64,000 nucleotides of DNA from Megamerina dolium (taxonomy: Eukaryota; Arthropoda; Insecta; Diptera; Megamerinidae), in assembly GCA_963854835.1 (NCBI GenBank), contig OY978527.1, positions 24,882,057 to 24,946,056 on the forward strand, given 5' to 3'. Position 1 is the first letter of the stretch; each line of letters starts with the position of its first letter. The translations under genes were made by a program, and so were the position numbers. The notes beneath the pieces were generated by a model. It was not told the DNA's origin. It made no database searches and saw nothing but the letters and a program-made list of their open reading frames with translations. Below, in pieces: positions 6,627 through 63,515 of the stretch.

Positions 6627-8627
6627 TCACAATATTGCCGTATCATCAGCAAAGGTCGATATAAATGTATAGTTATTGTTGGACATATCTGAAGTGTATA
6701 AGAGATACAGTAAAGGGCCCAAAACGCTTCCTTGAGGAACGCCAGCGTGAATATCCAATGGATTTGTTGTGTAATCCTTGTGATGTAAGAGAAATTGTCT
6801 TTTCGTGAGGTAGCTACTTAGCACTGAGGAGACATTTGCAGGCAGTAATAGTTTGATTTTGTAAATAAGGCCATCGTGCCATACTTTATCGAAAGCTTGA
6901 GTGATATCAAGAAAGACAGCTGAGCAATACTTTTTTTCTTCAAAAGTGTTCCTTATCAGAGTTACAATGCGGTGGACTTGTTCTATTGTGCCGTGCTGTT
7001 TTCTAAATCCAAACTGATGTTGAGGAATCAGTTGGTTGAGATTAATAAATGGAGTTATATTCATGACAAGTAGCTTTTCGAATACTTTAGAGAGTAGAGG
7101 CAGGAGGCTGATAGGTCTGTACGATGCAACTTTTGTAGGGTCTTTTCCTGGTTTTGCTATCATAATAATTTTTGAAATTTTCCAGCATTTGGGATAGTAT
7201 TTAATACGAAGGATAGCATTGAAAATGTGCATGAGATGAATTATTGAAGCCGGAGGTAGCTCTTTTATCATTTTACCGGTAATTTTATCTGGACCAGGTG
7301 ATTTTTTTGGGTTTAAATCTTTATAAATTGCTTTGAATATGTCCTTTTTTTTAATTTTGAGCGTTATTGAGCAAGGTTGAGAAGTTAATATTGGTAATGA
7401 GGACTGTGAAGAGGGTGGATTGGGTGTAAACACACTTTTTAGGTGGTTTGCAAAAGCCAAACCCTTCTCACAGTTGCTTCTAGCCCAATTACCGTCACTC
7501 AAACGGATGGGGGAATCAGTGAGAATTGGCCGATTTGATTTTTTTGCTGATTTCCACAAAGAGTAGTCTGACGCTTCACCAGGTGTTAATTTCGCTATGT
7601 GCTCTTCTAACTCTTTGTTGTTTTTATTTTTTAAGGCTTGCTTTAACTTTCGAGTGCAGTGCTGTAGCTGTGTTTTCAGATTCGGTGATCTGAATTCTTG
7701 CCATTGTCTTCGGAGTCTTCTTTTCTGTCTTACTAGCACTTCAATATCGGCTGGTGTGTATGGGCTATAGTTTGATTGCTTGCATACCTTTGTGCAGGTG
7801 GCTGAGCTGAGAGCTAATGAGAGCAGCTGGTTGAATTTTTCGAGTGCTGAGTCTACATCGTGTCCATTTCTTAATACAGTACTCAGAGGAAGATGGGAAT
7901 TTATATATTTCTTAAATTTCAACCAGTCTATTTTCTTTCTAACGCAATTGCCTTGGGGGCTTGGTGATTTTATAGATATTACCGTGGGTGAGTGGTCAGA
8001 TGATAGATCATAATTACACTCTGTGGAGTTATTTTCCATCTGCAAACCTTTGGCGACTCCAAAGTCTATGAGATCGGGTATCTTCCTCTTGTCCGTCGGC
8101 CAATATGTCGGTTGACCATTTGAAATAACATCGTAGCCGTGGTTAGTGATGATTGCACATAGTCTTCTGCCTTTTGGAGTTATTAAGCGGGAGCCCCAGT
8201 GAGTGTGTTTGGCGTTGAAATCACCAGCAACCAAGAATTTGCTACCAAGAGTTGAGCAAAATTCTTTATATTGCTGTTCGGTAATACTGTATCTTGGGGG
8301 ACAGTATATCGCAGATATTACTAGCTTAGAGATGTATTCTTCCAGACATATAGATGTTGCTTGCAAGTAGACTCTACTGAAATCTTCGAGAACATTATGG
8401 TTTATTTTGCTTTTTATCAATATTACAGTTCCTCCGCGTGCCTTACCATGCGGATGATTTGTGGTGTACAGTTTGTAATATGGCACTTGGTTGCAATTTT
8501 TGTCAGTGAAATGGGTCTCATATATCATCATTATGTCGATCTGGCTGGATTCAAGAAATTGAATTAGCTCCAAACGGTGCTGGCTTAAGCTGTTGGTGTT
8601 CCAGTGGCATATCTTGAGACAACTCAT
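6627..8627 (-). pseudogene. LINE ORF2: endonuclease plus reverse transcriptase
   Basis: A 666-codon open frame holds an AP-type endonuclease followed by RT. It would nick target DNA and prime reverse transcription on the nick. Endonuclease marks are CHWNTN (about residue 7), YETHF (about 40), GDFNAKHTHWG (about 140) and SSDHSP (about 215). RT marks are the YRPISLLPLLSKVFEKL fingers, HQFGFRKQHGTIEQV, motif A AVFLDITQAFDKVWH with its Asp present, AGVPQGSVLGP, and FADDTAIL at the very end. The frame stops directly after the active-site box because of the nearby deletion, so thumb and C-terminus are lost. The start codon overlaps the ORF1 stop as ATGA (8624-8627). This is the most complete Jockey-type enzyme in the window. 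Confidence 0.9.
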
Positions 8628-15931: not shown

Positions 15932-17027
15932 AAGAGTTATCCATTTTGCGGTTTCTAAAGTAAATGTAAATAAAACACATATAAAATATTTTTTATCATG
16001 ATATTTCTTTTTTATTATAAAGTTTGAACGTTGACATTATGTGTGAAATACAACATCATTTAAATGACCACCACGCGAATTGTTGCAAGCATCGATTCTT
16101 TTGAGGTAATTTTCGACCACTTTTTGACACATCTTGGGCGGTATCTCAGCCATAACGTGACGAATGTTGATTTTTAGGTGCTCAAGAGTTAAAGGTTTAT
16201 CTGCATAAACACGGTCTTTCGCGTAGCCCCACAAAAAAAAGTCAAGCGGTGTCAAATCGCATGATCTTGGTGGCCACTTGATATCGCCACGACGAGAAAT
16301 TACGCGGCCAGAAAATTTCTCTTGCAATAAAGCCATATTCGCTCGAGTTGTGTGGCATGTAGCACCGTCTTGTTGAAACCACATATTCTCTAAGTCGTAT
16401 TCTTCAATAGCAGGCAAAAAAAGTCGGTTATCATATGACCATAACGCTCCGAATTGACGGTGACAGTCGTTCCATCGTCGTTTTCGAAGAAGTAAGGTCC
16501 AATCACACCTCCGGACCAAAGAGCGCACCAAGCAGTGACTTTTTGTGGATGTAGTGCCCTCTCTTCAATTACTTGAGGATTTTCAGAACCCCAAATATGA
16601 CAATTTTGTTTGTTAACATACCCACCGAGTGAGAAATGTGCTTCGTCGCTGAAGAAAATTTTGTTCGAAAAATCGCCGTCCACCGCCTGTTGTTCAAGCA
16701 CCCATTCGACGTATCTACGACGTTGTGAATGGTCAGCTGGCTTCAGTTGTTGTGTGAGCTGGATTTTATATGGATGTAGGTGTAGATCCAAATGCAAAAT
16801 ACGCCATAATGTGCCGTAAGACAGTCCTAATTCTTGAGAACGACGAGGGTCTTCGGCAACACTTTCACTTACAGCAGCGATATTTTCGGTGGTACGAGCG
16901 AAACGATGATGCACAGGCCTTACAATATCTGTAACCGATCCAGTCTCTTCATATTTCTTCACAATTTTGCCAATTGCTGCGTAGTTGGACGATTATGTAA
17001 ACCATAATCTCCTCTTAAAGCACCCTT
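15932..17027 (-). mobile_element. rosa-like DD41D mariner, copy A
   Basis: The left terminal repeat AAGAGTTATCCATTTTGCGG begins at 15932 after TA. The right end retains only a few terminal bases (ACCCTT, 17022-17027) directly after transposase codons near 17020. The 5' untranslated part, the start codon region and most of the right inverted repeat are therefore deleted. Copy B at 17135 lies 107 bp away in the opposite orientation. Confidence 0.85.
16037..16962 (-). pseudogene. rosa-like transposase, copy A
   Basis: Same protein as copy B, minus its N-terminus. It retains FSDEAHFSLGG (first Asp), FQQDGATCHTTRAN (second Asp) and PPRSCDLTPLDFFLWGY (third Asp), ending GGHLNDVVFHT. The frame breaks at about 16415-16421: this copy has seven A residues in the run between GCAGGC and GTCGG, where copies B and C have eight. 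It has two lesions, the 5' deletion and this homopolymer slip, and is non-functional. Confidence 0.9.
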
Positions 17028-17134
17028 TAGTATGTTCAGATTGCCACCAAAATAATCCTATTAATGATTAATACTTATTGTTATTACTCTGCATATACTC
17101 AATTTATACGCTGCATAATGTAATATGCAAGGTA

Positions 17135-18428
17135 AAGGGTTATTCATTTCGCGGTTTCAAAAGTATAGGGCTAGAATTCGACATCTGTCAAACAGAGTTG
17201 TTAAAACAATTTCTTTCTTTTTCAGTTCAAAGTCTGACATTTGCGAAAATGGATCGCTTAACTATCGCACAACGCATTAAAATTGTAAAAACCTACTACA
17301 AAAATGGTGATTCTGCCACAGCCACATATCGTGCTTTAAGAGGAGATTATGGTTTACATAATCGTCCAACTACGCAAGCAATTGGCAAAATTGTGAAGAA
17401 ATATGAAGAGACTGGATCGGTTACAGATATTGTAAGGCCTGTGCATCATCGTTTCGCTTGTACCACCGAAAATATCGCTGCTGTAAGTGAAAGTGTTGCC
17501 GAAGACCCTCGTCGTTCTCAAGAATTAGGACTGTCTTACGGCACATTATGGCGTATTTTGCATTTGGATCTACACCTACATCCATATAAAATCCAGCTCA
17601 CACAACAACTGAAGCCAGCTGACCATTCACAACGTCGTAGATACGTCGAATGGGTGCTTGAACAACAGGCGGTGGACGGCGATTTTTCGAACAAAATTTT
17701 CTTCAGCGACGAAGCACATTTCTCACTCGGTGGGTATGTTAACAAACAAAATTGTCATATTTGGGGTTCTGAAAATCCTCAAGTAATTGAAGAGAGGCCA
17801 CTACATCCACAAAAAGTCACTGCTTGGTGCGCTCTTTGGTCCGGAGGTGTGATTGGACCTTACTTCTTCGAAAACGACGTTGGAACGACTGTCACCGTCA
17901 ATTCGGAGCATTATGGTCATATGATAACCGACTTTTTTTTGCCTGCTATTGAAGAATACGACTTAGAGAATATGTGGTTTCAACAAGACGGAGCTACATG
18001 CCACACAACTCGAGCGAATATGGCTTTATTGCAATAGAAATTTTCTGGCCGCGTAATTTCTCGTCGTGGCGATATCAAGTGGCCACCAAGATCATGCGAT
18101 TTGACACCGCTTGACTTTTTTTTGTGGGGCTACGCGAAAGACCGTGTTTATGCAGATAAACTTTTAACTCTTGAGGACCTAAAAACCAACATTCGTCACA
18201 TTATAGCTGAGATACCGCCCAAGATGTGTCAAAAAGTGGTCGAAAATTACCTCAAAAGAATCGATGCTTGCAACAATTCGCGTGGTGGTCATTTAAATGA
18301 TGTAGTATTTCACACATAATGTCAACGTTCAAACTTTATAATAAAAGAGAAATATCATGATAAAAAGTATTTTATACATATGTGTTTTATTTACATTTAC
18401 TTTTGAAACCGCGAAATGGATAACCCTT
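17135..18428 (+). mobile_element. rosa-like DD41D mariner, copy B, complete ends
   Basis: A 1294-bp element flanked by TA (17133-17134 and 18429-18430). The ends are inverted repeats of about 30 bp beginning AAGGGTTATTCATTTCGCGG (left) and AAGGGTTATCCATTTCGCGG (right, reverse complemented), with one difference. It is structurally complete and carries a transposase frame with one nonsense codon. The DD41D spacing and general protein match what is known of the rosa family first described in the fruit fly Ceratitis rosa; the family name is assigned from memory. Confidence 0.9.
17249..18319 (+). pseudogene. rosa-like transposase, copy B, one stop codon
   Basis: The start is the ATG at 17249 ([20 protein letters not shown]), preferred over the longer in-frame upstream extension because copy C retains the same Met and upstream sequence is untranslated. 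The 356-codon reading contains an N-terminal helix-turn-helix, FSDEAHFSLGG (first Asp), WFQQDGATCHTT (second Asp) and SCDLTPLDFFLW (third Asp). Counting from the second to the third Asp gives 41 intervening residues. A TAG at 18035-18037 replaces the GAG seen in copies A and C. Otherwise the frame runs unbroken, so this is the best-preserved mariner gene here. Confidence 0.92.
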
Positions 18429-38960: not shown

Positions 38961-39061
38961 ACTGTCATTTTTGAAAAAAAAAAACAATTTTGGTACTATA
39001 AAAAATTCCGGAAAAAAACTCTTCAACTCACCCCTTACTGAATATATATATATATATATTC

Positions 39062-41520
39062 ATATGTATTCAGTGTGTCTTTTCTTTTTAATCGACGATG
39101 CCCCATGCTCAGCAACAATTGCCTAGCAAGGGGATTCGGATGATTGTGTAATTTTTGAATGTAGCTTCTGTAGGATATTGCAACTTCCTCAGAAATTGTG
39201 GGTACAATTAAATCTCGATGGATGTTAACGTTCCTCATATACCAAGGCGCGTTTACAATATTTCGCAGACACTTGGATTGTATTCGCTGCAATTTTTCGA
39301 TATTTGAGGGAGATGCGGTGCCCCAAAGCTGAATACCACAAGTCCAGATTGGCTTCAGGATTGCTTTATATAATAGCACTTTGTATTCGAGATTCAACTT
39401 TGACCTTTTGTGTGACAGCCACCATAACCGATTAATTTTAAGCTTGATCTGAGTTTTCTTTGCCTCTATGTGATTTTTCCAGGTCAGCCTTCTGTCCAGG
39501 TGAATACCCAAGTACTTTGTTGAGGAACATTGTGGAACTGATTGGCCATTAATTTTAAGTGGGGGACATGTATCTAGCCTTAGCGTGAAGGTTACATGTA
39601 CGCTCTTTGATTCATTGACTTTTATCCGCCATTTTGCTAACCAGATTTCGAGAGAATCGACATGAGTCTGCAAGAGTTTAGTAGCTTCTATGGGGTTAGA
39701 GCGAGAGCACAATATTGCCGTATCATCAGCAAAGGTCGATATGAATGTATAGTTATTGTTGGGCATATCTGAAGTGTATAAGAGATACAGGAAGGGGCCC
39801 AAAACGCTTCCTTGAGGAACGCCAGCGTGAATATCCAATGGATTTGTTGTGTAATCCTTGTGATGTACGAGAACTTGTCTTTTCGTGAGGTAGCTACAAA
39901 TCAATGAAGAGACATTTGCAGGCAATAATAGTTTCAGTTTGTAAATAAGGCCATCGTGCCATACTTTATCGAAAGTTTGAGTGATATCAAGAAAGACAGC
40001 TGAGCAATACTTTTTTTCTTCAATAGTGTTCCTTATCAGAGTTACAATGCGGTGGACTTGTTCTATTGTGCCGTGCTGTTTTCTAAATCCAAACTGATGT
40101 TGAGGAATCAGTTGGTTGAGATTAATAAATGGAGTTATATTCATGACAAGTAGCTTTTCGAATACTTTAGAGAGTAGAGGCAGAAGGCTGGTTTTGCTAT
40201 CATAATGATTTTTGAAGTTTTCCAGCATTTGGGATGGTGTTTAATACGAAGGATAGCATTGAAAATGTGCATGAGATGAATTACTGAAGCCGGAGGTAGC
40301 TCTTTTATCATTTTACCGGTAATCTTATCTGGACCAGGTGATTTTTTTGGATTTAAATTTTTATAAATTGCTTTGAATATGTCCTTTTTTTAATTTTGAG
40401 CGTTATTGAGCAAGGTTGAGAAGTTAATTTTGTTAATGAGGGCTGTGAAGAGGGTGGATAGGGTGTAAACACACTTTTTAGGTGGTCTGTAAAAGCCAAA
40501 CCCTTCTCACAGTTGCTTCTAGCCCAATTACCGTCACTGAAACGGATGGGGGAATCAGTGAGAATTGGCCGATTTGCGTTTTTTGCTGATTTTCACAAAG
40601 AGTAGTCTGACGCTTCACCAGGTGTTAATTTGGCTATGTGCTATTCTAACTCTTTCTTGTTTTTATTTTTTAAGGCTTGCTTTAACTTTCGAGTGCAGTG
40701 CTGTAGCTGTGTTTTCAGATTCGGTGATCTAAATTCTTGCCATTGCTTTCGGAGTCTTCTTTTCTGTCTTACTAGCAATTCAATGTCAGCTGATGTGTAT
40801 GGGCTATAGTTTGATTGCTTGCATACCCTTGTACAGGTGGCTGAGCTGAGAGCCAATGAGAGCAGCTGGTTGAATCTTTCGAGTGCTGAGTCTACATCGT
40901 GTCCTTTTTTTAATACAGTACTTAGAGGAAGATGGGAATTTATATATTTCTTAAATTTCAACCAGTCTATTTTCTTTCTAACGCAATTGCCTTGGGGGCT
41001 TGGTGATTTTATAGATATTACCGTGGGTGATTACACTCTGTAGAGATATTTTTCATCTGCAAACCTTTGGCGACTCCAAAGTCTATGAGATCGGGTATCT
41101 TCCTCTTGTCCGTCGGCCAATACGTCTGTTGACCATTTGAAATAATATCGTAGCCGTGTATCTTGGGGGACAGTATATCGCAGATATTACTAGCTTAGAG
41201 ATGTATTCTTCCAGACATATAGATGTTGCTTGCAAGTAGACTCTACTGAAATCTTCGAGAACATGATGTTTTATTCTGCTTTTTATCAATATGGCAGTTC
41301 CTCCGCGTGCCTTACCATGCGGATGATTTGTGGTGTACAGTTTGAAATATGGTATTTGGTAGCAATTTTTGTCAGTGAAATGGGTCTCAGATATCATCAT
41401 TATGTCGATTTGGCTGGATTCAAGGAATTGAATTAGCTCCAAACGGTGCTGGCTTAAGCCGTTGGCGTTCCAGTGGCATATCTTGAGACAACTCAAGATC
41501 ATCATTTCTTGCATCATTGT
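39062..41520 (-). pseudogene. J3 ORF2, deleted and frameshifted
   Basis: The C-terminal frame (40228-39035) runs from the RT fingers (LLPLLSKVFEKLL) through HQFGFRKQHGTIEQV, FLDITQTFDKVWH (motif A Asp present, Ala to Thr nearby), AGVPQGSVLGP and FADDTAIL to the terminal RLKRKDTLN. Upstream, 40961-40641 holds the linker. 41571-41083 holds the endonuclease start (CHWNANGLSQ, SETHF) but runs into a deletion that removes the GDFNAKH motif. The endonuclease is therefore dead, while the RT domain is among the best preserved. Confidence 0.88.
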
Positions 41521-47173: not shown

Positions 47174-48795
<1,622 letters not shown>

Positions 48796-50029: not shown

Positions 50030-53000
50030 GTGGTCTGGTGGTGTTTTCGCAAGGTAACGTGTCTAACTGCCTCAACTGGGTGGGGCTAGCGCAATCCTTG
50101 TTTAACTCATCGCAAGTCAACTCGCTGGCTGTCATGTAGTTTGATCTGAGCGCTATGTGATGATACCTTAATTTGTTAATGAGGGGTAATCATATAGCTT
50201 GCTCTGCTTACTATGTGACGGCGCTTTCATTATTATTAATGGGGGCCCTCCATGTGGCGACCACCGGGCAACGTCTTCCTGGCACCCGCTGGGAGGCGGC
50301 TGAAGTGAGTGGCGAAAATCTCCTCGGTTAGAGGTTGTGCGTTGGGTTTGGGACCCGCCACATAAAAAACCCCCCCAATGAAAAAAACAAATATGCCTCG
50401 GATAAGGACTACCGCTTTTGTTGATGACCCCCGCAAACGAAAAAAGGACAATGATTTACGGATATGCACCTGGAATGTCCGGTCCCTTTATAGGGAGGGT
50501 GCCTCTATCCAGCTGGTTGATGTCCTCGAACAATACAGAGCTGACATCACCGCTCTCCAGGAAATGCGATGGACAGGACAGCGCTGCTCCAAAAAGCGTC
50601 CTGTGACATCTACTACAGTTGCCATGCTGAAAGGCACGAATTAGGATGTGGATTTTTGGTCAGCAAGAGACTACGACATCTTGTCTCACAGTTCACGCCT
50701 GTGAACGAACGGCTGGCCACAATCCGCATCAAGGCAAAATTTTTCAACATCATCCTTATATGTGCCCACGCTCCGACGGATGAGAAGGACAATGTGACCA
50801 AGGAGAGCTTCTTTCAGCGCCTCGAAGAAGCTTATGACCGCTGCCCCCGCCACGATATCAAAATCGTTCTTGGCGACTTTAATGCCAGGGTGGGCAAGGA
50901 AGGTACCTTTGGTCCAACTGTCGGAAAATTCAGCCTCCACCAGAACACCTCCGATAACGGAATGAGGCTGATCGACTTCGCCGCAGCACGAAATATGGTA
51001 ATTGGTGGTACCAGATTCCAGCATCTCGACAAAGCGACATGGCTGTCTCCAGATCATCGTACAAGAAACGAAATTGATCATGTGGTGATTGACGGAAGGC
51101 ATGCTTCCAGTGTGATGGACGTGAAATCGATCCGTGGTGCCAACATCGACTCGGATCACTACCTTGTTGCAGCTAAGGTGCGCACACGCTTATGTGTCGC
51201 ACATAACAAGAGAAGTCCCACACAGAGAAAGCTCGACGTCAGTAAGCTGCGATCACCAGAGACAGCAGGTGCATTTTCCACTCGACTATCGGATCTGCTT
51301 ATGCAGAACACTCCCCCACTTGATGATACATGCGCACGGTGGACACATATATCCCACTCCATGACTACTGCTGCCGAGGAGGTAATCGGTTACTACCGGC
51401 CTCTGAGGAATGAGTGGTATGATCAGGAGTGTCGCGACGCTACCGCAGAGAAAGACGCCGCCTACAGAAGAACCCTGCGTGCAGGCGCAACGCGAGCTGT
51501 TAAGGAGCGGTACAGAGAGAAAAGGAGTGCAGAGAGACGTATTTTCAGGCGCAAGAAGAGGGAGTTGAAAAGACGTGAGTGTGAGGAGATAGAGATGTGT
51601 ACCGACAAGAATGAGACTCGAAAATTCTTCGAAAAGATCAAGCGCCTAAGTGGAGGTTTAAATCCCGGAGCCTCTTCTTGTCGTGATGGAAATGGGAATC
51701 TGGTTACAGATGTCCAGAGTGTACTGAGCCTATGGAGGGAACACTTCTCCACGTTACTGAATGGCGATGCTACGAACAATTCCGCCAGTGGAGGAGATTG
51801 CCCGATAACCCCAATTACAGATGATGGTGTTGATGTTCCACCACCTGACTATGACGAGGTTGAAACGGCCATTTTAAGGCTGAAGAACAACAAAGCTGCA
51901 GGTGCTGATGGCCTGCCTGCCGAGTTGTTTAAGACCGGAGGCGATGAGCTGCTCACCCGCATGCACCAGCTCATAAGCAGAATATGGTCGGATGAAAGCA
52001 TGCCTGATGATTGGAGGCTCAGTGTTCTCTGTCCTGTACATAAAAAAGGAGACCCCACAATTTGCGCCAACTACCGTGGAATAAGTCTCCTGAGCATCGC
52101 ATACAAGGTTCTATCGAGCGTACTGTATGAAGCCTATGCTTAGCAACCTGATTGGACCTTATCAGTGTGGCTTCAGACCTGGTAAATCCACCATCGACCA
52201 GATTTTCACACTGCGCCAAATCCTGGAGAAGACCCAAGAAAAATAGATCGACACACACCACCTATTTGTTGATTATAAAGCCGCTTTCGACAGTCCGGTA
52301 AGGGATTACCTCTACGCAAAGCTCATTCGACTTTGTAGAATGACACTGCATAACTCCCGTTGTGCAGTGAAAATTGGGAAGGACCTCTCCGCACCGTTTA
52401 ATACCGAATGGGGTTTCAGACAAGGTGATTCGTTATCGTGCGACTTCTTCAATCTTATTATGGAGAAAATAATACGAGCTGCTGATCTACGACATAATGG
52501 CACTATCTTCAACAAAAGTGTCATGCTGTTAGCGTATGCCGACGATATTGACATAATCGGCATGAACACGCGAGCAGTCAGTGCAGCATTATCAGAGTTG
52601 GAAAGAGAGTCGCGTCGGATGGGTCTCACGGTGAACGAGGGCAAGACGAAGTATCTAGTGTCTACAAACAAAGAGTCCCGGCGTCTTGGACAACTCGTCA
52701 CTGTTGACAATTACACTTTCGAGGTGGTGAAAGACTTCGTCTATCTTGGAACCAGCATCAACAACTGTAATGACGTCAGTTAGGAGATCATGCGTAGGAT
52801 AACTCTTGCTAACAGGTGTTACTTTGGGCTGAGTAAGCAATTGAAAAGTCGAGCCCTCTCTCGAAGAACTAAAACTACACTCTTCAAGTCTCTCATCATG
52901 CCTGTCCTAACATATGGCGCTGAAGCCTGGACAATTTCCATCTCGGATGAGCGAATGCTTGGAGTTTTCGAGAGAAAAGTCCTACGCAAGATCTTTGGAC

Positions 53001-54800: not shown

Positions 54801-54908
54801 AAATTTTACAAATTTTTTAATCAATTTTTTTCCCAAAATAACCGTTATTGACCTATGGAAAATTTAAAACCGTATTCATATTCCTTCCCAATGGTGTATT
54901 AAACATAT

Positions 54909-55346
54909 TGTAACGAGTATCGATAGTTGATTACTCATCACTATTGTGACTGGCACTATTGGCAGCATCGAAACGAATGTCAACAAAAAGAAATGAGCGA
55001 TAACCAGAACAAGCCAACGAGAAAGGAAGAGAAGAATCTCGATAAAGGAAGATTCTGGGGTGTTGCCAACAGAGTATAAATAGAGCCAGTGTTGAGAATT
55101 GACAATCAATCTAATTCCAAACGTGATTGCGAAAACATTGATACAGAGGCAAAAGTTGCAAGTACATTTAAGTGTTATAGTAAATAGTTGATTGTAAACA
55201 GAGTTGATTGTAAATAGAGATTATTAAATAAATTGTTGCTGTATATAGTTGTATAAAATAAGTGTTGCAGTTATCATTAACAGAATCCAGTGATCGAACA
55301 AGGTAATTCAAATAGAATTAAACGTTCACAGAATAAAAACGTAACA
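54909..55346 (+). repeat. 5' LTR
   Basis: Begins TGTAACGAGTATCG and ends CGTAACA (TG...CA). A TATA box, TATAAATA, lies at 55075-55082 and AATAAA at 55227-55232. A short internal duplication, AGTTGATTGTAAA, sits at about 55184-55217. These elements fit promoter and RNA end signals. Confidence 0.93.
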
Positions 55347-55348
55347 AT

Positions 55349-55364
55349 TGGTGTCAGAAGTGGG
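55349..55364 (+). other. Primer-binding site (tRNA-Leu type)
   Basis: TGGTGTCAGAAGTGGG begins 2 nt after the 5' LTR. It is the exact complement of the CCA-ended 3' terminus of an insect tRNA-Leu as I know it (CCCACTTCTGACA plus CCA). Confidence 0.85.
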
Positions 55365-55375
55365 ATTCTGTAAAA

Positions 55376-58333
55376 ATGGTGAAAATTGACCAACTAAAAG
55401 TGGATCAGCTTAAAAAGCTGTTGGTAGAGATGAATCTATCGTCATCAGGTGCAAAGGCGGAACTGCTGGTGAGGCTGAGGAAAGCCATGGAGGCTAAGGG
55501 AATTAATGTAGAAGAACATGAGTTCTTTGAGGAAGACGATATACATGCAGTTGTGCACGCCGAGGAAGAGAGTAAGGTAGATTCGAGTGGTCAACTCATG
55601 GAATTTATGAAATCCATGATGCAACAGCAGCAGCAGCAACTGCAAGGAATTAATGCGAAGTTACAAGAACATTCGGCTGAATTGCGTACGGAAATTCAAG
55701 GAAATGCGTCTCGCATTGACTCCAAGTTTCAAGAACATTCGGTACGTCAAGAAAACGCTATGGGAGAATTCCAGAAAACAATTGACTCCAAGCTTCAAGA
55801 ACATTCGGCTCGTCAAGAACATGTCATCGAAAAACTACAAAAGGGAATTGAGATTAGATTTCAGGAAATTTCCGGAGCTATTAATGACAAAGTCACAGAG
55901 CTGAAAGAACATGTGGATGATTTGGATGATAAGCTGAAGGAACATGTAGACAGACATGATGACTTGGAAGAAAAGCTTGAGAAATTAGAGCGCGAACTTA
56001 ATAAAATAAAAATAAGTGGAGCAACCACATCAGTGATAAGAGAGTCAACTACAATTAAACTAAAGCCACCAATATTTGACGGAAGCACGCCATTCAACAT
56101 CTTCAAGCTTCAATTCGAGACAACAGCTTCGAAGAATCAATGGGATGACAGCGACAAGACTGCTGCTTTAATAGTCGCATTAAAAGGTAATGCTTCCGAA
56201 GTGTTACAGATGATTCCAGAGAAAGATCGGGGTAGCTACCAATCACTGATGGACACACTCCAGCGAAAATATGGAAATGAATACAAGAGTCAATTACATC
56301 GAGTTGAATTGAGATCGCGAGTGCAACGGAGTAATGAGAGCCTTCAGGAATTCGCTTCCGATATTGAGCGCTTATGTCGTCTAGCGTTCTCCGGTAATTC
56401 GGAAGAGTTCGTCGAAAAAATAAAAATAGAGGCATTCATAGATGGTATACGTGATGGAGAGACAAAGCGTGCCCTAGTCATGTCACCCAGGAATACTTAT
56501 GCCGAAACAGTCAGTAGTGCCTTGACGTTTGAAGCCGCCAGTTTCATGTGTCGACCAGTGCCAGGAGTACGCAAACTAGAGGGGAAAACATCACATCTGG
56601 TTGAAGCAGTGTGTCAGGCAGTAAAATCAGTAGTGCAGCCTGAAGGAAGAACAACAGGTCGACGTGAAAACAAATTTAATGGTAAGTGCTTCATTTGCGA
56701 CAAACGAGGGCATATAGCTCGTGATTGCAATCAATCGAGTATGAAGCCTAAAGGAAGAACAAGGAATCAACACAAAAATAAATTTGCCGGTAAGTGCTTC
56801 ATATGCGATCAAAGAGGACACATGGCGCGTAATTGTCGGCTACGACGCAAGCAACAAAGATCGAATTCACCAGGACAACGAAAGGAAGATCGTGATGTCA
56901 TTCATCGTGGTAAAGCTGTTACTCCATATCATCGTACTTGCACCGTAGATAGTAAACATTGTTCTCGGGTAGGAAGCCAGAATCACATTGTTAACCTACG
57001 ACTTACGAATGTATTATCGGAAGAGTCATGGACAACCGAACGAGTTCAAGAAGATCAACGGGACGACCCAGATCTCGCAAAGATTATGGAACACAAGGAG
57101 CAGGGCATACGTCCAGATTGGCAAGAAATGGCTAATGAGAGTCCAATAGCAAAGGCATACTGGGCGCAGTGGCAAAGCCTGCACTTACGAGACGGATGTT
57201 TATTCCGAGCATGGGAAAGTGAGGATGGAAAAATCACTAATGATCTTCTAGTGGTACCCAAGGCGAGAATAAATGAAGTGATAGCTGAGTATCACAATGC
57301 CTCCAGTGGAGGGCATTTGGGAATCACCAAAACCGTCGAGAAAATAAAGAAACGATTTTATTGGGTTGGATGTCATGACCATGTCGCTGATTGGATTCGG
57401 AAATGTAAGCAATGTGCAATGGCCAAAGGTCCCACTAAGAAAAGTCGAGGTAAGATGCACCAATACACCGTGGGTGCTCCATTTGAGCGAATTGCTATGG
57501 ACATAGCTGGGCCATTTCCAATAAGCAACGCAGGAAACAAGTATGTTCTGGTGGTTATAGATTACTTCAGTAAATGGCCTGAAGTATACCCCATTCCAAA
57601 TCAAGAAGCTAGTACAGTTGCGGATGTATTCGTCAACCAATGGATTACTCGTTTTGGTGTACCGATGGAGTTACACTCAGACCAAGGTCGAAATTTCGAA
57701 TCAGTTGTATTCCAAGAGATATGCCGTATGCTGGGTATATACAAAACTCGTACAACACCTTTGCATCCACAATCTGATGGCATGGTAGAACGATTTAACC
57801 GTACCTTGGTGGAATATTTGAGAAAAGTCGTAGATAAATACCAAAGAGACTGGGATGTACATATACCAATGTTCCTCATGGCATATCGATGCGCACAACA
57901 TGATACGACGGCTGCTACACCGGCAATGGCAATTTTTGGAAACGAGTTAAGACTGCCAGCTGATTTAAAATTTGGAGTCGTAACACCAACGAGATCAACC
58001 GAAGGTAATTATACTAGCGAAAAGCGGGAACAGTTGGATGAAGTACATCGGTTCATCAGAGAGCGGTCGCAGATGATAAGCGATAAGATGAAGGCCAGGT
58101 ATGACTTGAAAGCAAATTCAAAAGGGTTCTATGAAGGAGAGCTTGTAATGCTTCATAATCCACAACGAAAGAAAGGCCTGTCCCCTAAACTACAGACTCA
58201 TTGGGAAGGACCATATGAGATTATAGCAAAGATAAATGACGTAGTGTATCGCATTCAACGTGCCTGGAATAAAAGAGCAAAGTTTAAAGTAGTGCACTTA
58301 GAGCGACTTGCGCCATATCGAGGGGAAGTATAA
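55376..58333 (+). CDS. Gag-integrase fusion protein of LTR element
   Basis: An uninterrupted 985-codon frame starting 12 nt after the primer site. Residues about 5-40 form a SAP-type motif (DQLKKLLVEMNLSSSGAKAE). Residues 83-88 are Gln. Residues about 90-212 are coiled coil with SKLQEHSARQE-like repeats. A Gag capsid-like region spans about 225-390. Zinc knuckles are C438/C441/H446/C451 and C474/C477/H482/C487. A short linker then leads into sequence normally found after RNase H (about residue 517 onward) and a complete integrase: HHCC zinc ligands H640, H647, C677, C680, then D709, D769 and E805 (D35E spacing), and a C-terminal GPYEI module. There is no protease (DTG/DSG) and no RT (YxDD). 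Gag would package RNA, and integrase would insert the cDNA. The junction stays in frame. Confidence 0.93.
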   Translation: MVKIDQLKVDQLKKLLVEMNLSSSGAKAELLVRLRKAMEAKGINVEEHEFFEEDDIHAVVHAEEESKVDSSGQLMEFMKSMMQQQQQQLQGINAKLQEHSAELRTEIQGNASRIDSKFQEHSVRQENAMGEFQKTIDSKLQEHSARQEHVIEKLQKGIEIRFQEISGAINDKVTELKEHVDDLDDKLKEHVDRHDDLEEKLEKLERELNKIKISGATTSVIRESTTIKLKPPIFDGSTPFNIFKLQFETTASKNQWDDSDKTAALIVALKGNASEVLQMIPEKDRGSYQSLMDTLQRKYGNEYKSQLHRVELRSRVQRSNESLQEFASDIERLCRLAFSGNSEEFVEKIKIEAFIDGIRDGETKRALVMSPRNTYAETVSSALTFEAASFMCRPVPGVRKLEGKTSHLVEAVCQAVKSVVQPEGRTTGRRENKFNGKCFICDKRGHIARDCNQSSMKPKGRTRNQHKNKFAGKCFICDQRGHMARNCRLRRKQQRSNSPGQRKEDRDVIHRGKAVTPYHRTCTVDSKHCSRVGSQNHIVNLRLTNVLSEESWTTERVQEDQRDDPDLAKIMEHKEQGIRPDWQEMANESPIAKAYWAQWQSLHLRDGCLFRAWESEDGKITNDLLVVPKARINEVIAEYHNASSGGHLGITKTVEKIKKRFYWVGCHDHVADWIRKCKQCAMAKGPTKKSRGKMHQYTVGAPFERIAMDIAGPFPISNAGNKYVLVVIDYFSKWPEVYPIPNQEASTVADVFVNQWITRFGVPMELHSDQGRNFESVVFQEICRMLGIYKTRTTPLHPQSDGMVERFNRTLVEYLRKVVDKYQRDWDVHIPMFLMAYRCAQHDTTAATPAMAIFGNELRLPADLKFGVVTPTRSTEGNYTSEKREQLDEVHRFIRERSQMISDKMKARYDLKANSKGFYEGELVMLHNPQRKKGLSPKLQTHWEGPYEIIAKINDVVYRIQRAWNKRAKFKVVHLERLAPYRGEV

Positions 58334-58355
58334 AAACTTGTTCGGGACGAACAAG

Positions 58356-58371
58356 GTTAAGAGGAGGGCAG
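58356..58371 (+). other. Polypurine tract
   Basis: GTTAAGAGGAGGGCAG directly before the 3' LTR, the expected site of plus-strand DNA priming. Confidence 0.8.
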
Positions 58372-58809
58372 TGTAACGAGTATCGATAGTTGATTACTCA
58401 TCACTATTGTGACTGGCACTATTGGCAGCATCGAAACGAATGTCAACAAAAAGAAATGAGCGATAACCAGAACAAGCCAACGAGAAAGGAAGAGAAGAAT
58501 CTCGATAAAGGAAGATTCTGGGGTGTTGCCAACAGAGTATAAATAGAGCCAGTGTTGAGAATTGACAATCAATCTAATTCCAAACGTGATTGTGAAAACA
58601 TTGATACAGAGGCAAAAGTTGCAAGTACATTTAAGTGTTATAGTAAATAGTTGATTGTAAACAGAGTTGATTGTAAATAGAGATTATTAAATAAATTGTT
58701 GCTGTATATAGTTGTATAAAATAAGTGTTGCAGTTATCATTAACAGAATCCAGTGATCGAACAAGGTAATTCAAATAGAATTAAACGTTCACAGAATAAA
58801 AACGTAACA
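58372..58809 (+). repeat. 3' LTR
   Basis: Same length and sequence as the 5' LTR except one C-to-T difference. TATA box at 58538-58545 and AATAAA at 58690-58695. Confidence 0.93.
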
Positions 58810-58943
58810 ATATTTTTAAAAAAATTGTATGTATTTTTAATATTTTTTATATTCTCATACTTTGTCTACTACAATTACGTGTATACGGAAAAAGTAGGGA
58901 GACAAAGAATAATTATGGTGATAAATATAAATATTGTAAAAAT

Positions 58944-59984: not shown

Positions 59985-61984
59985 ATCTGAGACCCACACA
60001 TCTCTAAGCTAGTAATATCTGCGATATACTGTCTCCCAAGATACAGTATTACCAAAGAGCAATATAAAGAATTTTTCTCAACTCTTGATAGCAAATTCTT
60101 GGTTGCTGGCGATTTCAACGCCAAACACACTCACTGGGGCTCCCGCTTAATAACTCCAAAAGGCAGAAGACTATGCTCAATCATCATTACCCACGGCTAC
60201 GATGTTATTTCAAATGGTCAACAGACGTATTGGCCGACGGACAAGAGGAAGATACCCGATCTCATAGACTTTGGAGTCGCCAAAGATTTGCAGATGAAAA
60301 ATATCTCTACAGAGTGTAATCACCCACGGTAATATCTATAAAATCACCAATCCCCCAAGGCAATTGCGTTAGAAAGAAAATAGACTGGTTGAAATTTAAG
60401 AAATATATAAATTCCCATCTTCCTCTAAGTACTGTTTTAAGAAATGGACACGATGTAGACTCAGCACTCGAAAAATTCAACCAGCTGCTCTCATTGGCTC
60501 TCAGCTCAGCCACCTGTACAAGGGTATGGAAGCAATCAAACTATAGCCCATACACATCAGCTGACATTGAATTGCTAGTAAGACAGAAAAGAAGACTCCG
60601 AAAGCAATGGCAAGAATTTAGATCACCGAATCTGAAAACACAGCTACAGCACTGCACTCGAAAGTTAAAGCAAGCCTTAAAAAATAAAAACAAGAAAGAG
60701 TTAGAATAGCACATAGCCAAATTAACACCTGGTGAAGCGTCAGACTACTCTTTGTGAAAATCAGCAAAAAACTCAAATCGGCCAATTCTCACTGATTCCC
60801 CCATCCGTTTGAGTGACGGTAATTGGGCTAGAAGCAACTGTGAGAAGGGTTTGGCTTTTACAGACCACCTAAAAAGTGTGTTTACACCCTATCCACCCTC
60901 TTCACAGCCCTCATTAACAAAATTAACTTCTCAACCTTACTCAATAACGCTCAAAATTAAAAAAAGGACATATTCAAAGCAATTTATAAAAATTTAAATC
61001 CAAAAAAATCACCTGGTCCAGATAAGATTACCGGTAAAATGATAAAAGAGCTACCTCTGGCTTCAGTAATTCATCTCATGCACATTTTCAATGCTATCCA
61101 GGAAAAGACCCTACAAATTTTGCATCGTACAGACCTATCAGTCTTCTGCCTCTACTCTCTAAAGTATTCGAAAAGCTACTTGTCATGAATATAACTCCAT
61201 TTATTAATCTCAACCAACTGATTCCTCAACATCAGTTTGGATTTAGAAAACAGCACGGTACAATAGAACAAGTCCACCGCATTGTAACTCTGATAAGGAA
61301 CACTTTTGAAGAAAAAAAGTAGTCTTTCTTGATATCACTCAAACTTTCGATAAAGTATGGCATGATGGCCTTATTTACAAACTCAAACTATTATTGCCTG
61401 CAAATGTCTCCTCATTGCTTAGTAGCTACCTCACGAAAAGACAATTTCTCGTACATCACAAGGATTACACAACAAATCCATTGGATATTCACGCTGGCGT
61501 TCCTCAAGGAAGCGTTTTGGGCCCCTTCCTGTATCTCTTATACACTTCAGATATGCCCAACAATAACTATACATTCATATCGACCTTTGCTGATGATACG
61601 GCAATATTGTGCTCTCGCTCTAACCACATAGAAGCTACTAAACTCCTGCAGACTCATGTCGATTCTCTCGAAATATGGCTAGCAAAATGGCGGATAAAAG
61701 TCAATGAATCAAAGAGCGTATATGTATCCCTTACACTAAGGCTAGATATATGTCCCCCACTTAAAATTAATGGCCAATCAGTTCCACAATGTTCCTCAAC
61801 AAAGTACTTGGGTATTCACCTGGAAAAATCACATAGAGGCAAAGAAAACTCAGATTAAGCTTAAAATGAATCAGTTATGGTGGCTGTTACACAAAAGGTC
61901 AAAGTTGATTCTCGAATACAAATTGCTATTATATAAAACAATTCTGAAGCCAATCTGGACTTGTGGTATTCAGTTTTGGGGCGA
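59985..61984 (+). mobile_element. Jockey-like LINE (copy J7), truncated at both ends
   Basis: Plus-strand sibling of J2 and J3. It begins inside the endonuclease (about ISKLVISAIYC, in part) and ends abruptly in the thumb region (CGIQFWG) at the inverted repeat starting 61986. Poly(A) and 3' untranslated region are missing. A deletion of about 60 bp at about 61098 lies between two CC pairs. The same repeat family lies on both sides of it. Confidence 0.85.
60010..61984 (+). pseudogene. J7 ORF2, multiply broken
   Basis: 60099-60332 has VAGDFNAKHTHWGS and the NGQQTYWPTDKRKIPDLIDF part of the endonuclease; SSDHSP is lost to a deletion. 60389-60709 is the linker. 61020-61320 gives SPGPDKITGKMIKELP and HQFGFRKQHGTIEQV. 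Motif A follows in a shifted phase as FLDITQTFDKVWH, then 61394-61858 with AGVPQGSVLGPFLYL and FADDTAILCS. HLEKSHRGKENSD marks a deletion of LDRRLTW that shifts the frame. The last part, to 61984, is the thumb. Catalytic Asp residues persist but no long frame does. Confidence 0.85.
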
Positions 61985-61985
61985 T

Positions 61986-62110
61986 ATGGCTAATCGCAGT
62001 ATTTTCTATGTTTACGTTACTTTACTTCACGTTATAATTGGACCATTAAGAGAATGTGTGTTCCTTCCATATGCTGTTTGAAATTCACTAAAAAATTTCT
62101 ATAGGCTCCA
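61986..62110. repeat. Inverted repeat, left arm
   Basis: About 125 bp, matching the reverse complement of 63390-63515 with roughly five mismatches. It contains GCTAATCGCAGTATTTTCTA and ATTGGACCATTAAGAGAATG. The arms are 1.28 kb apart, of which a SINE accounts for 0.37 kb. It could be the end of a DNA transposon, but no coding core was recognised. Confidence 0.75.
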
Positions 62111-63389: not shown

Positions 63390-63515
63390 AGCCTATAGAA
63401 TTTTTTTAGTGAATTTCAAACAGCATTTGGAACGAACACACATTCTCTTAATGGTCCAATTATAACGTGAAGTAAAGTAACGTAAACGTAGAAAATACTG
63501 CGATTAGCCATATCG
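63390..63515. repeat. Inverted repeat, right arm
   Basis: Partner of 61986-62110. Continues to the right with GTAAACTACAGTAGAAGTCA, then GCTGTTGTG. The repeated CGTAAAGTAACGT-type motif is also seen at 59845-59930. Confidence 0.75.

What the first reader, a model, noticed from the sequence alone, without database searches (positions are those of the whole stretch)
55376..58333. Intact Gag-integrase fusion ORF in an LTR element that lacks protease, RT and RNase H
Seen directly: one 985-codon frame contains Gag with two zinc knuckles and then a complete integrase with HHCC and D35E residues, with no YxDD or DTG/DSG motif between. Known: Ty3/gypsy elements order Gag, PR, RT, RH, IN. Inference: an in-frame deletion of roughly 2-3 kb, near residues 490-517, made a non-autonomous element that keeps Gag and IN under one start. 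Non-autonomous LTR elements usually keep no ORF or only Gag, so one retaining an uncleaved Gag-IN is unusual. It could package itself and bring its own integrase while borrowing RT.
Basis: partly seen in the sequence, partly recalled or inferred. Interest (0 to 1): 0.88.

Follow-up and report, generated by a model that had tools for sequence, protein, structure and literature searches.

The report
RT-less Gag-integrase retrotransposon family
A jumping gene that has lost the enzyme it needs to copy itself, but keeps its shell protein fused to its DNA-inserting enzyme, appears in several hundred places of one genome (probably an insect's), apparently by borrowing the missing enzymes from a complete sister element with which it keeps exchanging sequence.

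Summary
Window 54905-58813 is a complete 3.9-kb LTR element: 438-bp LTRs (1 mismatch), 4-bp TSD, PBS, PPT, and one 985-codon SAP-Gag-CCHC-CCHC-integrase frame with no protease, RT or RNase H. It is not a one-off: the junction pattern matches 784 times in the source genome (reversed control 0). An RT-bearing sister (its RNase H tail matches 1,365 times) shares LTR, PBS region and integrase sequence, and has Gag and Pol in two frames with a likely -1 frameshift signal, absent from 30 of 30 Gag-IN copies read. In samples, sister and Gag-IN cannot be told apart in LTR, Gag 240-380 and IN 600-985, but separate almost fully beside the junction: an old deletion in a recombining pool. dN/dS is about 0.2 in Gag and IN, 0.85 in the junction segment; integrase stops and frameshifts seen are all private to one copy. 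Best reading: a semi-autonomous element supplying its own Gag and IN and borrowing PR-RT-RH. No Gag-IN class appeared in paper searches.

The parts
54905..54908 (.). target-site duplication ATAT, left copy
   Evidence: right copy at 58810-58813
54909..55346 (+). 5' LTR, 438 bp, TGTAACG...CGTAACA
   Evidence: 1 mismatch to the 3' LTR; LTRs of one sister copy 97.3 and 97.7% identical
55349..55367 (+). primer-binding site TGGTGTCAGAAGTGGGATT; assignment to tRNA-Leu is recalled, not tested (the tRNA search did not complete)
   Evidence: same sequence in 9 of 11 sister copies (the other 2 gave no alignment) and 28 of 30 Gag-IN copies
55376..58333 (+). single 985-codon Gag-integrase ORF
   Evidence: 46 matches over 1-985
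55388..55489 (+). SAP domain (residues 5-38)
   Evidence: Pfam PF02037, 31.2 bits
55715..55846 (+). two 66-bp direct repeats in the coil part of Gag; this part varies in length between copies
56174..56452 (+). Gag core (Retrotrans_gag, residues 267-359)
   Evidence: Pfam PF03732
56687..56728 (+). first CCHC zinc knuckle (residues 438-451)
56795..56836 (+). second CCHC zinc knuckle (474-487); 12 of 20 pattern-chosen copies show two in one frame, 11 of 11 sister copies one
56903..56941 (+). deletion junction: decayed RNase H tail HRGKAVTPYHRTC (residues 510-522), aligning without gaps to HHGNADALSRRPC of the sister; the 35-nt counting pattern starts at 56903
57254..57427 (+). integrase HHCC zinc-binding domain (627-684)
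   Evidence: Pfam PF17921
57479..57769 (+). integrase catalytic core match (702-798); E805 of the D709/D769/E805 triad lies just beyond it
   Evidence: Pfam PF00665
58208..58315 (+). integrase C-terminal domain (945-980)
   Evidence: Pfam PF22938
58337..58355 (+). hairpin CTTGTTCG-GGA-CGAACAAG (8-bp stem, 3-nt loop) between stop codon and PPT; also in the more distant family L032
58359..58371 (+). polypurine tract AAGAGGAGGGCAG
58372..58809 (+). 3' LTR, 438 bp
58810..58813 (.). target-site duplication ATAT, right copy

Best explanation
This is one copy of an abundant, recently mobile, semi-autonomous Ty3/gypsy-type retrotransposon that lost protease, RT and RNase H in one old in-frame deletion and keeps Gag and integrase as a single protein. 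Shown: hundreds of places share the junction pattern; an RT-bearing sister with the same LTRs and PBS region (and, in the one copy read there, the same PPT) lies in the same genome; in the samples read the two differ consistently only around the junction. Inferred: Gag-IN RNA is packed with sister RNA into mixed particles; the sister's Gag-Pol, made by -1 frameshifting, supplies protease, RT and RNase H; the Gag-IN protein, made without a frameshift and so about one IN per Gag, supplies shell subunits and integrase, at least partly in cis; template switching between packed RNAs keeps exchanging LTR, gag and IN sequence, so that the deletion behaves like an old allele in one recombining pool while the dead RNase H stub drifts.
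For: 784 junction-pattern matches, control 0; 46 listed matches over 1-985. 30 of 30 fetched copies have both LTRs, 36 mismatches in 13,113 LTR bases (13 of them in L014), 15 of 30 with no substitution; 25 of 30 exact TSD. Sister: LTR 97.3-97.7%, UTR5/PBS 28/28, UTR3/PPT 38/38, IN 98% nt in one copy; 1,365 matches to its RNase H tail, control 0; 41 of 65 listed RT hits have a 1201-aa open frame, 40 of them without a stop in the match (ranked list, more than one family). dN/dS 0.16-0.26 in each Gag and IN segment, 0.85 in residues 498-545. Snn (about 0.48 expected without differentiation): LTR 0.48, Gag 240-380 0.56, Gag 381-452 0.97, IN 527-580 0.96, IN 600-985 0.54; net divergence +0.195 at 508-537, about 0 from residue 588 on and in Gag windows up to 384. 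13 IN stops (57 copies counted) and frameshifts in 8 of 58 copies are all singletons, whereas 21 of 82.5 private synonymous IN changes are shared (rough P 0.022 for stops, 0.002 with frameshifted copies). GTTAAAC at the gag end of 10 of 11 sister copies; the exact 10-mer GTTAAACTAA in 0 of 30 Gag-IN copies.
Against: Only 5 of 20 pattern-chosen copies keep one unbroken Gag-to-IN frame. The 30 copies were ranked by protein similarity, which lowers dN. Much shared IN variation also occurs in the sister, so constraint may be partly imported: for private variants alone the singleton/shared N-versus-S contrast is p = 0.088 over 57 copies and 0.009 in 27 pattern-chosen ones. Only 11 sister copies were read, so 'private' is provisional. 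The RNase H stub divergence rests on one sister copy (L034); ten further tails agree by eye but were not put into those numbers. 8 of 20 pattern-chosen copies show only one CCHC, so the second knuckle seems dispensable. No transcript, protein or mobility data.
Confidence: 0.75

Rival explanations
1. Passive passenger: the sister supplies everything in trans, and the Gag-IN frame looks constrained only because recombination with the sister keeps re-importing selected gag and IN sequence.
For: Gag 240-380 and IN 600-985 are not differentiated from the sister; 25 of 46 shared synonymous IN changes also occur in the 11 sister copies read; private N-versus-S contrast over 57 copies only p = 0.088.
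Against: Imports should not by themselves leave nulls unshared: none of 13 IN stops and none of the frameshifts is shared, against about a quarter of private synonymous changes. In the intact copies the frame is also kept through Gag 381-452 and IN 527-580, which are hardly exchanged with the sister.
Confidence: 0.17
2. Interfering element: Gag-IN protein acts mainly as a dominant inhibitor or copy-number control of the sister, like a defective interfering particle.
For: A Gag carrying a bulky C-terminal extension would join sister shells (inference); 784 against 1,365 pattern matches shows a heavy load relative to the sister.
Against: Inhibition does not by itself conserve integrase: its triad is invariant in 30 copies and its zinc ligands vary once (C680Y).
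Confidence: 0.06
3. Artefact: gene-model, assembly or isolated-deletion artefact.
For: Database gene models do leave out parts of such elements, for example P0005, which also lacks parts of Gag and IN.
Against: The window and the copies are genomic DNA with their own TSDs at many sites.
Confidence: 0.01

Closest known systems
RLG_Quinta / RLG_Cereba pair of wheat (PMC11302176; passages read)
   Same: Non-autonomous derivative that keeps an intact gag, shares PBS and LTR ends with an autonomous partner, is old, and shows recombination (there described between Quinta lineages).
   Different: Quinta encodes Gag plus a domain of unknown function and has no integrase; here a complete integrase is kept in frame with Gag, and divergence from the partner is concentrated at the junction instead of in gag.
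Semi-autonomous RLG_Sabrina_SA and RLG_WHAM of wheat (PMC9744471; passages read)
   Same: High-copy partner elements that contribute some proteins and lack RT and IN genes of their own.
   Different: Sabrina_SA keeps Gag and protease; here protease is gone and integrase is kept.
BARE2 of barley (as described in a PMC9744471 passage)
   Same: Partial loss of coding capacity, presumably complemented by a sister element.
   Different: BARE2 has a disrupted gag and keeps its other genes, the converse pattern.
TR-GAG and TRIM classes (names seen in paper listings) and LARD (recalled); definitions recalled
   Same: LTRs, PBS and PPT kept; RT borrowed.
   Different: TR-GAG keeps only gag, LARD and TRIM no canonical coding frame; none keeps integrase.
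Predicted SAP-Gag-IN proteins of Bactrocera dorsalis (P0001, 923 aa, cluster of 27) and Haematobia irritans (P0002, 972 aa, cluster of 3)
   Same: Same domain order without RT, 46% and 45% identity over 100% and 99% of the query, junction near the RNase H tail.
   Different: Each IN groups with an RT-bearing relative, not with the window, so they look like separate origins; they are database gene models whose DNA I could not see.

Membership tests
Ty3/gypsy (Metaviridae) LTR retrotransposon | LTRs with TG..CA ends, PBS, PPT, short TSD | tested here: met
   30 of 30 fetched copies with two LTRs and 25 of 30 with an exact 4-bp TSD
Ty3/gypsy (Metaviridae) LTR retrotransposon | Integrase of the Ty3/retroviral type | tested here: met
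   H2C2, rve and p58_C in Pfam; best solved relative Ty3 Gag-Pol 7q5b, E 1.2e-30, then PFV integrase
Ty3/gypsy (Metaviridae) LTR retrotransposon | pol order PR-RT-RH-IN in the parent lineage | tested here: met
   relatives P0003 and P0014; sister: PR motif, RT-RH match, IN; absent from the element itself
Autonomous LTR retrotransposon | own protease, RT and RNase H | tested here: not met
   missing by an about 2.2-kb deletion
[quoted passage not shown]
   (PBS region the same in 9 of 11 sister copies, 2 not aligned; PPT compared with one sister copy only)
[quoted passage not shown]
   young insertions show past mobility, not the helper
TR-GAG class (definition recalled) | gag as the only coding domain | tested here: not met
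   complete integrase in the same frame
Domesticated host gene | single or few loci without LTRs or TSDs | tested here: not met
   784 pattern matches; LTRs and TSDs at the loci read

The most novel reading that the evidence does not exclude
Gag and integrase are the two functions of this retrotransposon that must be supplied in cis, while protease, RT and RNase H can be supplied in trans. Loss of exactly PR-RT-RH therefore yields a stable, recurrent class of semi-autonomous element (Gag-IN) that has arisen several times in fly-type genomes and persists as a long-lived structural allele, marked by an island of divergence round the deletion in an otherwise freely recombining retrotransposon population.
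Probability: 0.4. Interest if true: 0.85.

Novelty: new variant of a known kind. Interest (0 to 1): 0.7.

Why it matters
It is a natural complementation experiment: it points to which retroelement proteins can be borrowed and which an element keeps for itself. It also gives a measurable example of balanced-polymorphism-like behaviour in a transposon: one deletion allele that looks far older than the insertions carrying it, with sequence exchange everywhere sampled except round the deletion. A Gag-IN protein made 1:1 without frameshifting (inferred) also bears on how much integrase a Ty3-type particle tolerates.

Tried and rejected
Relatives in IMG/VR and GTDB contigs: two scans each, none confirmed. 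A profile search with three Gag-IN proteins returned 25 proteins, mostly distant gypsy polyproteins and not its own members, and I draw nothing from it. A Gag-only search found 7 proteins; P0121-P0123 are SAP-Gags ending in LN, P0124 is a SAP-Gag with another end; used as context only. Cordylochernes RT-less models (P0022, P0061, P0075, P0082, P0091) and Lucilia P0005 were set aside as probable gene-model products because several lack internal pieces; Aromia P0043/P0044 and other RT-less rows were not examined further. Creation of the fusion by splicing of a full-length RNA was considered; the junction is in genomic DNA, and I did not test whether splicing once made it. The PBS assignment to tRNA-Leu stays recalled: searches did not complete. 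mis-cut the sister IN pieces (its helper numbers are void); replace it. One search missed copies on the minus strand; one search replaces it. L056 was dropped from the IN site counts (its 3' end is replaced); L071 was dropped from the LTR test (37 LTR bases); two Gag-IN rows under 80% coverage were dropped from the IN 600-985 test. Literature: seven answered searches showed no described Gag-IN LTR class in their listings; the library lacks most subscription papers.
Full report
OBSERVATION. The window holds a complete LTR element at 54909-58809, flanked by ATAT on both sides (54905-54908, 58810-58813). The LTRs are 438 bp with one mismatch; the PBS starts at 55349; the PPT ends at 58371; the frame 55376-58333 has 985 codons. 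Pfam finds SAP, Gag, two CCHC knuckles and a three-domain integrase and, among 23 families listed at E<=1, no protease, RT or RNase H. The catalytic spacing is D769-35-E805. The nearest solved relatives by sequence are Ty3 Gag-Pol (7q5b) and foamy-virus integrase. tblastn finds no second copy in the window.

COPY NUMBER AND ACTIVITY. In the window's own genome (500.5 Mb, 8 contigs, unnamed) the protein query returned 46 matches over residues 1-985, 95-100% identical, 38 of 46 without stops; only the best candidates are scored, so this is a lower bound biased to intact copies. A 35-nt junction pattern (up to 2 mismatches) matched 425 + 359 = 784 times, against 0 + 0 for the reversed pattern. 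The 30 loci returned all have both LTRs; 25 of 30 have an exact 4-bp TSD; four of the other five belong to two tandem pairs that share an LTR, and L003 has ATAC/GTAT. LTR pairs differ at 36 of 13,113 positions, 13 of them in L014; 15 of 30 pairs have no substitution, one of these (L012) an indel. So the Gag-IN form has transposed recently and often. In a sample chosen by the junction pattern, not by protein score (20 copies: every fifth of the 100 listed hits, all on contig C1 and all exact pattern matches), 5 of 20 have an unbroken Gag-to-IN frame.

THE SISTER ELEMENT. An RT-RNase H query gave 65 listed RT-bearing places, more than one family, 41 of 65 with a 1201-aa open frame. One of these (pieces L033, L034) has LTRs 97.3-97.7% identical to the window's, the same PBS region (28/28) and 3' UTR/PPT (38/38), IN 98% and most of gag 89% identical in DNA. 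The pattern for its RNase H tail (up to 3 mismatches) matches 671 + 694 = 1,365 times, control 0. Its gag (475 aa, one CCHC) ends in ..NPSLN and a stop, and pol is open in the -1 frame. The overlap carries GTTAAAC followed by an 11-bp stem (GAGTCAGTTCA / TGAACTGACTC) whose loop GGGGC could pair with a downstream GCCCC (read from the sequence). GTTAAAC is at the gag end of 10 of 11 sister copies (L071 has GTTAAAA). The more distant family L031 has GTTAAAT and a stem with compensating changes. That this is a -1 frameshift signal with a pseudoknot is inference from pattern; the heptamer type is recalled. The 10-mer GTTAAACTAA is in 0 of 30 Gag-IN copies, whose Gag and IN are one frame.

THE JUNCTION. 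Window residues 510-522, HRGKAVTPYHRTC, align without gaps to HHGNADALSRRPC, the RNase H tail of the sister copy L034; NADALSRRPC is kept in 10 of 10 further sister copies. The deletion is about 2.2 kb. The 30 ranked copies share this junction, so a single origin is likely.

SELECTION. Across the 30 ranked copies (pairwise Nei-Gojobori), dN/dS is 0.16 (SAP/coil), 0.21 (Gag core), 0.26 (knuckles and tail), 0.19, 0.24 and 0.18 (three IN segments), but 0.85 in residues 498-545. Singleton changes, mostly after insertion, are N:S 95.5:39.5 plus 4 stops; shared changes are N:S 98.3:114.7 with no stop. In the 20 pattern-chosen copies pN/pS is 0.23 in Gag core and 0.28 in IN, 0.47 in SAP. Of 58 Gag-IN copies, 57 were counted for sites: 13 stops in IN, all singletons; frameshifts in IN occur in 8 of 58, none shared. 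About a quarter of private synonymous IN changes are shared, so the chance of no shared stop is about 0.02, and about 0.002 with frameshifted copies (rough, variants not independent). Against this, the singleton/shared contrast for private N versus S changes is only p = 0.088 in 57 copies, and 0.009 in the 27 pattern-chosen ones.

RECOMBINATION AND AGE. The 5' LTR differs as much within the 30 ranked Gag-IN copies (0.0297) and within the sister sample (0.0313) as between them (0.0308). Hudson's Snn (30 draws of equal group sizes, about 0.48 expected by chance) is 0.48 for the LTR, 0.56 for Gag 240-380 and 0.54 for IN 600-985 (median permutation p 0.50, 0.22, 0.35), but 0.97 for Gag 381-452 and 0.96 for IN 527-580. 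Net divergence (20 pattern-chosen copies against 11 sister copies) peaks at residues 508-537 (+0.195) and is about zero from residue 588 on and in Gag windows up to 384; over roughly the first 17 codons of the IN-side profile only L034 stands for the sister. Synonymous divergence between Gag-IN and sister is 0.29 per site in residues 523-551 (0.32 in the stub, one sister copy) and 0.05 in IN 552-985. Three of 58 Gag-IN copies (L015, L017, L019; the last two a tandem pair) carry the sister's version of the block just right of the junction. The simplest reading is one old deletion whose flanks are steadily exchanged with the sister by template switching, so that only tightly linked sequence shows its age; set against mean LTR divergence within elements (0.0027) the junction flank is roughly a hundred times more diverged. 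An alternative, that the junction came in from a more diverged family and then decayed, would also make it old. No absolute date is claimed.

RELATIVES. Two database proteins have the same RT-less SAP-Gag-IN order over 99-100% of the query: P0001 (Bactrocera dorsalis, 27 cluster members) and P0002 (Haematobia irritans). In an IN tree of 52 rows the window groups with RT-bearing P0003 and P0004 (SH-aLRT 99), P0001 with RT-bearing P0014 (100), P0002 with RT-bearing P0037 (100). P0001 and P0014 differ at 4 of the first 60 columns after the junction and 6 of the next 430 (p 0.024), an echo of the same island. This suggests separate origins of the same design, but these are gene models whose DNA I could not read. 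The named relatives in the list are largely arthropod, with true flies nearest; that the host is a fly is inference.

MECHANISM. Shown: structure, pattern counts, youth of the insertions read, the sister with the same cis signals, low dN/dS in Gag and IN, relaxed junction segment, lack of differentiation from the sister away from the junction. Inferred: mixed particles, PR-RT-RH borrowed, template switching, IN used in cis, 1:1 Gag to IN. Not shown: expression, cleavage, the mobilising enzyme.

NOVELTY. Known wheat partner systems keep Gag (RLG_Quinta, PMC11302176, passages) or Gag and protease (RLG_Sabrina_SA, PMC9744471, passages), and BARE2 has a disrupted gag (same source). I found no described Gag-IN class in the listings of searches. 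I rate it a new variant of a known kind.

Noticed in passing
58337-58355: A perfect 8-bp hairpin (CTTGTTCG-GGA-CGAACAAG) between the stop codon and the PPT, also present in the more distant family L032, in whose record the window LTR finds no match.
   Followed up: partly
L033 2137-2196 and L031 around 2170-2230: Putative -1 frameshift signal of the sister family, GTTAAAC/T plus stem and possible pseudoknot, with compensating changes between two families.
   Followed up: partly
G000 C6:25073483/25076943, C6:2446099/2449545, C3:24598880/24602316, C3:39938687/39942109; also three junction hits at C1:47040937-47047667: Neighbouring Gag-IN copies at about 3.35-3.46 kb spacing, apparently head-to-tail; in the two pairs read (L017/L019, L018/L029) the flanks show a shared LTR.
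   Followed up: partly
56687-56836: Copies differ in zinc knuckle number: of 20 pattern-chosen copies 12 show two and 8 one in a single frame; two copies (L045, L058) lack exactly 108 bp there.
   Followed up: partly
L031 about 460-655 and L032 about 1700-1850: The LTR region of the more distant family shows many overlapping direct and inverted self-matches of about 138 bp.
   Followed up: no
61982-62107 and 63390-63515: A 126-nt inverted repeat, 97% complementary, 1.3 kb apart.
   Followed up: no
6627-8627, 39035-40228, 50569-52143 and 16037-18037, 47511-48137: Long frames that look like non-LTR reverse transcriptases/endonucleases and mariner-like transposases (my reading; no family scan run).
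   Followed up: no
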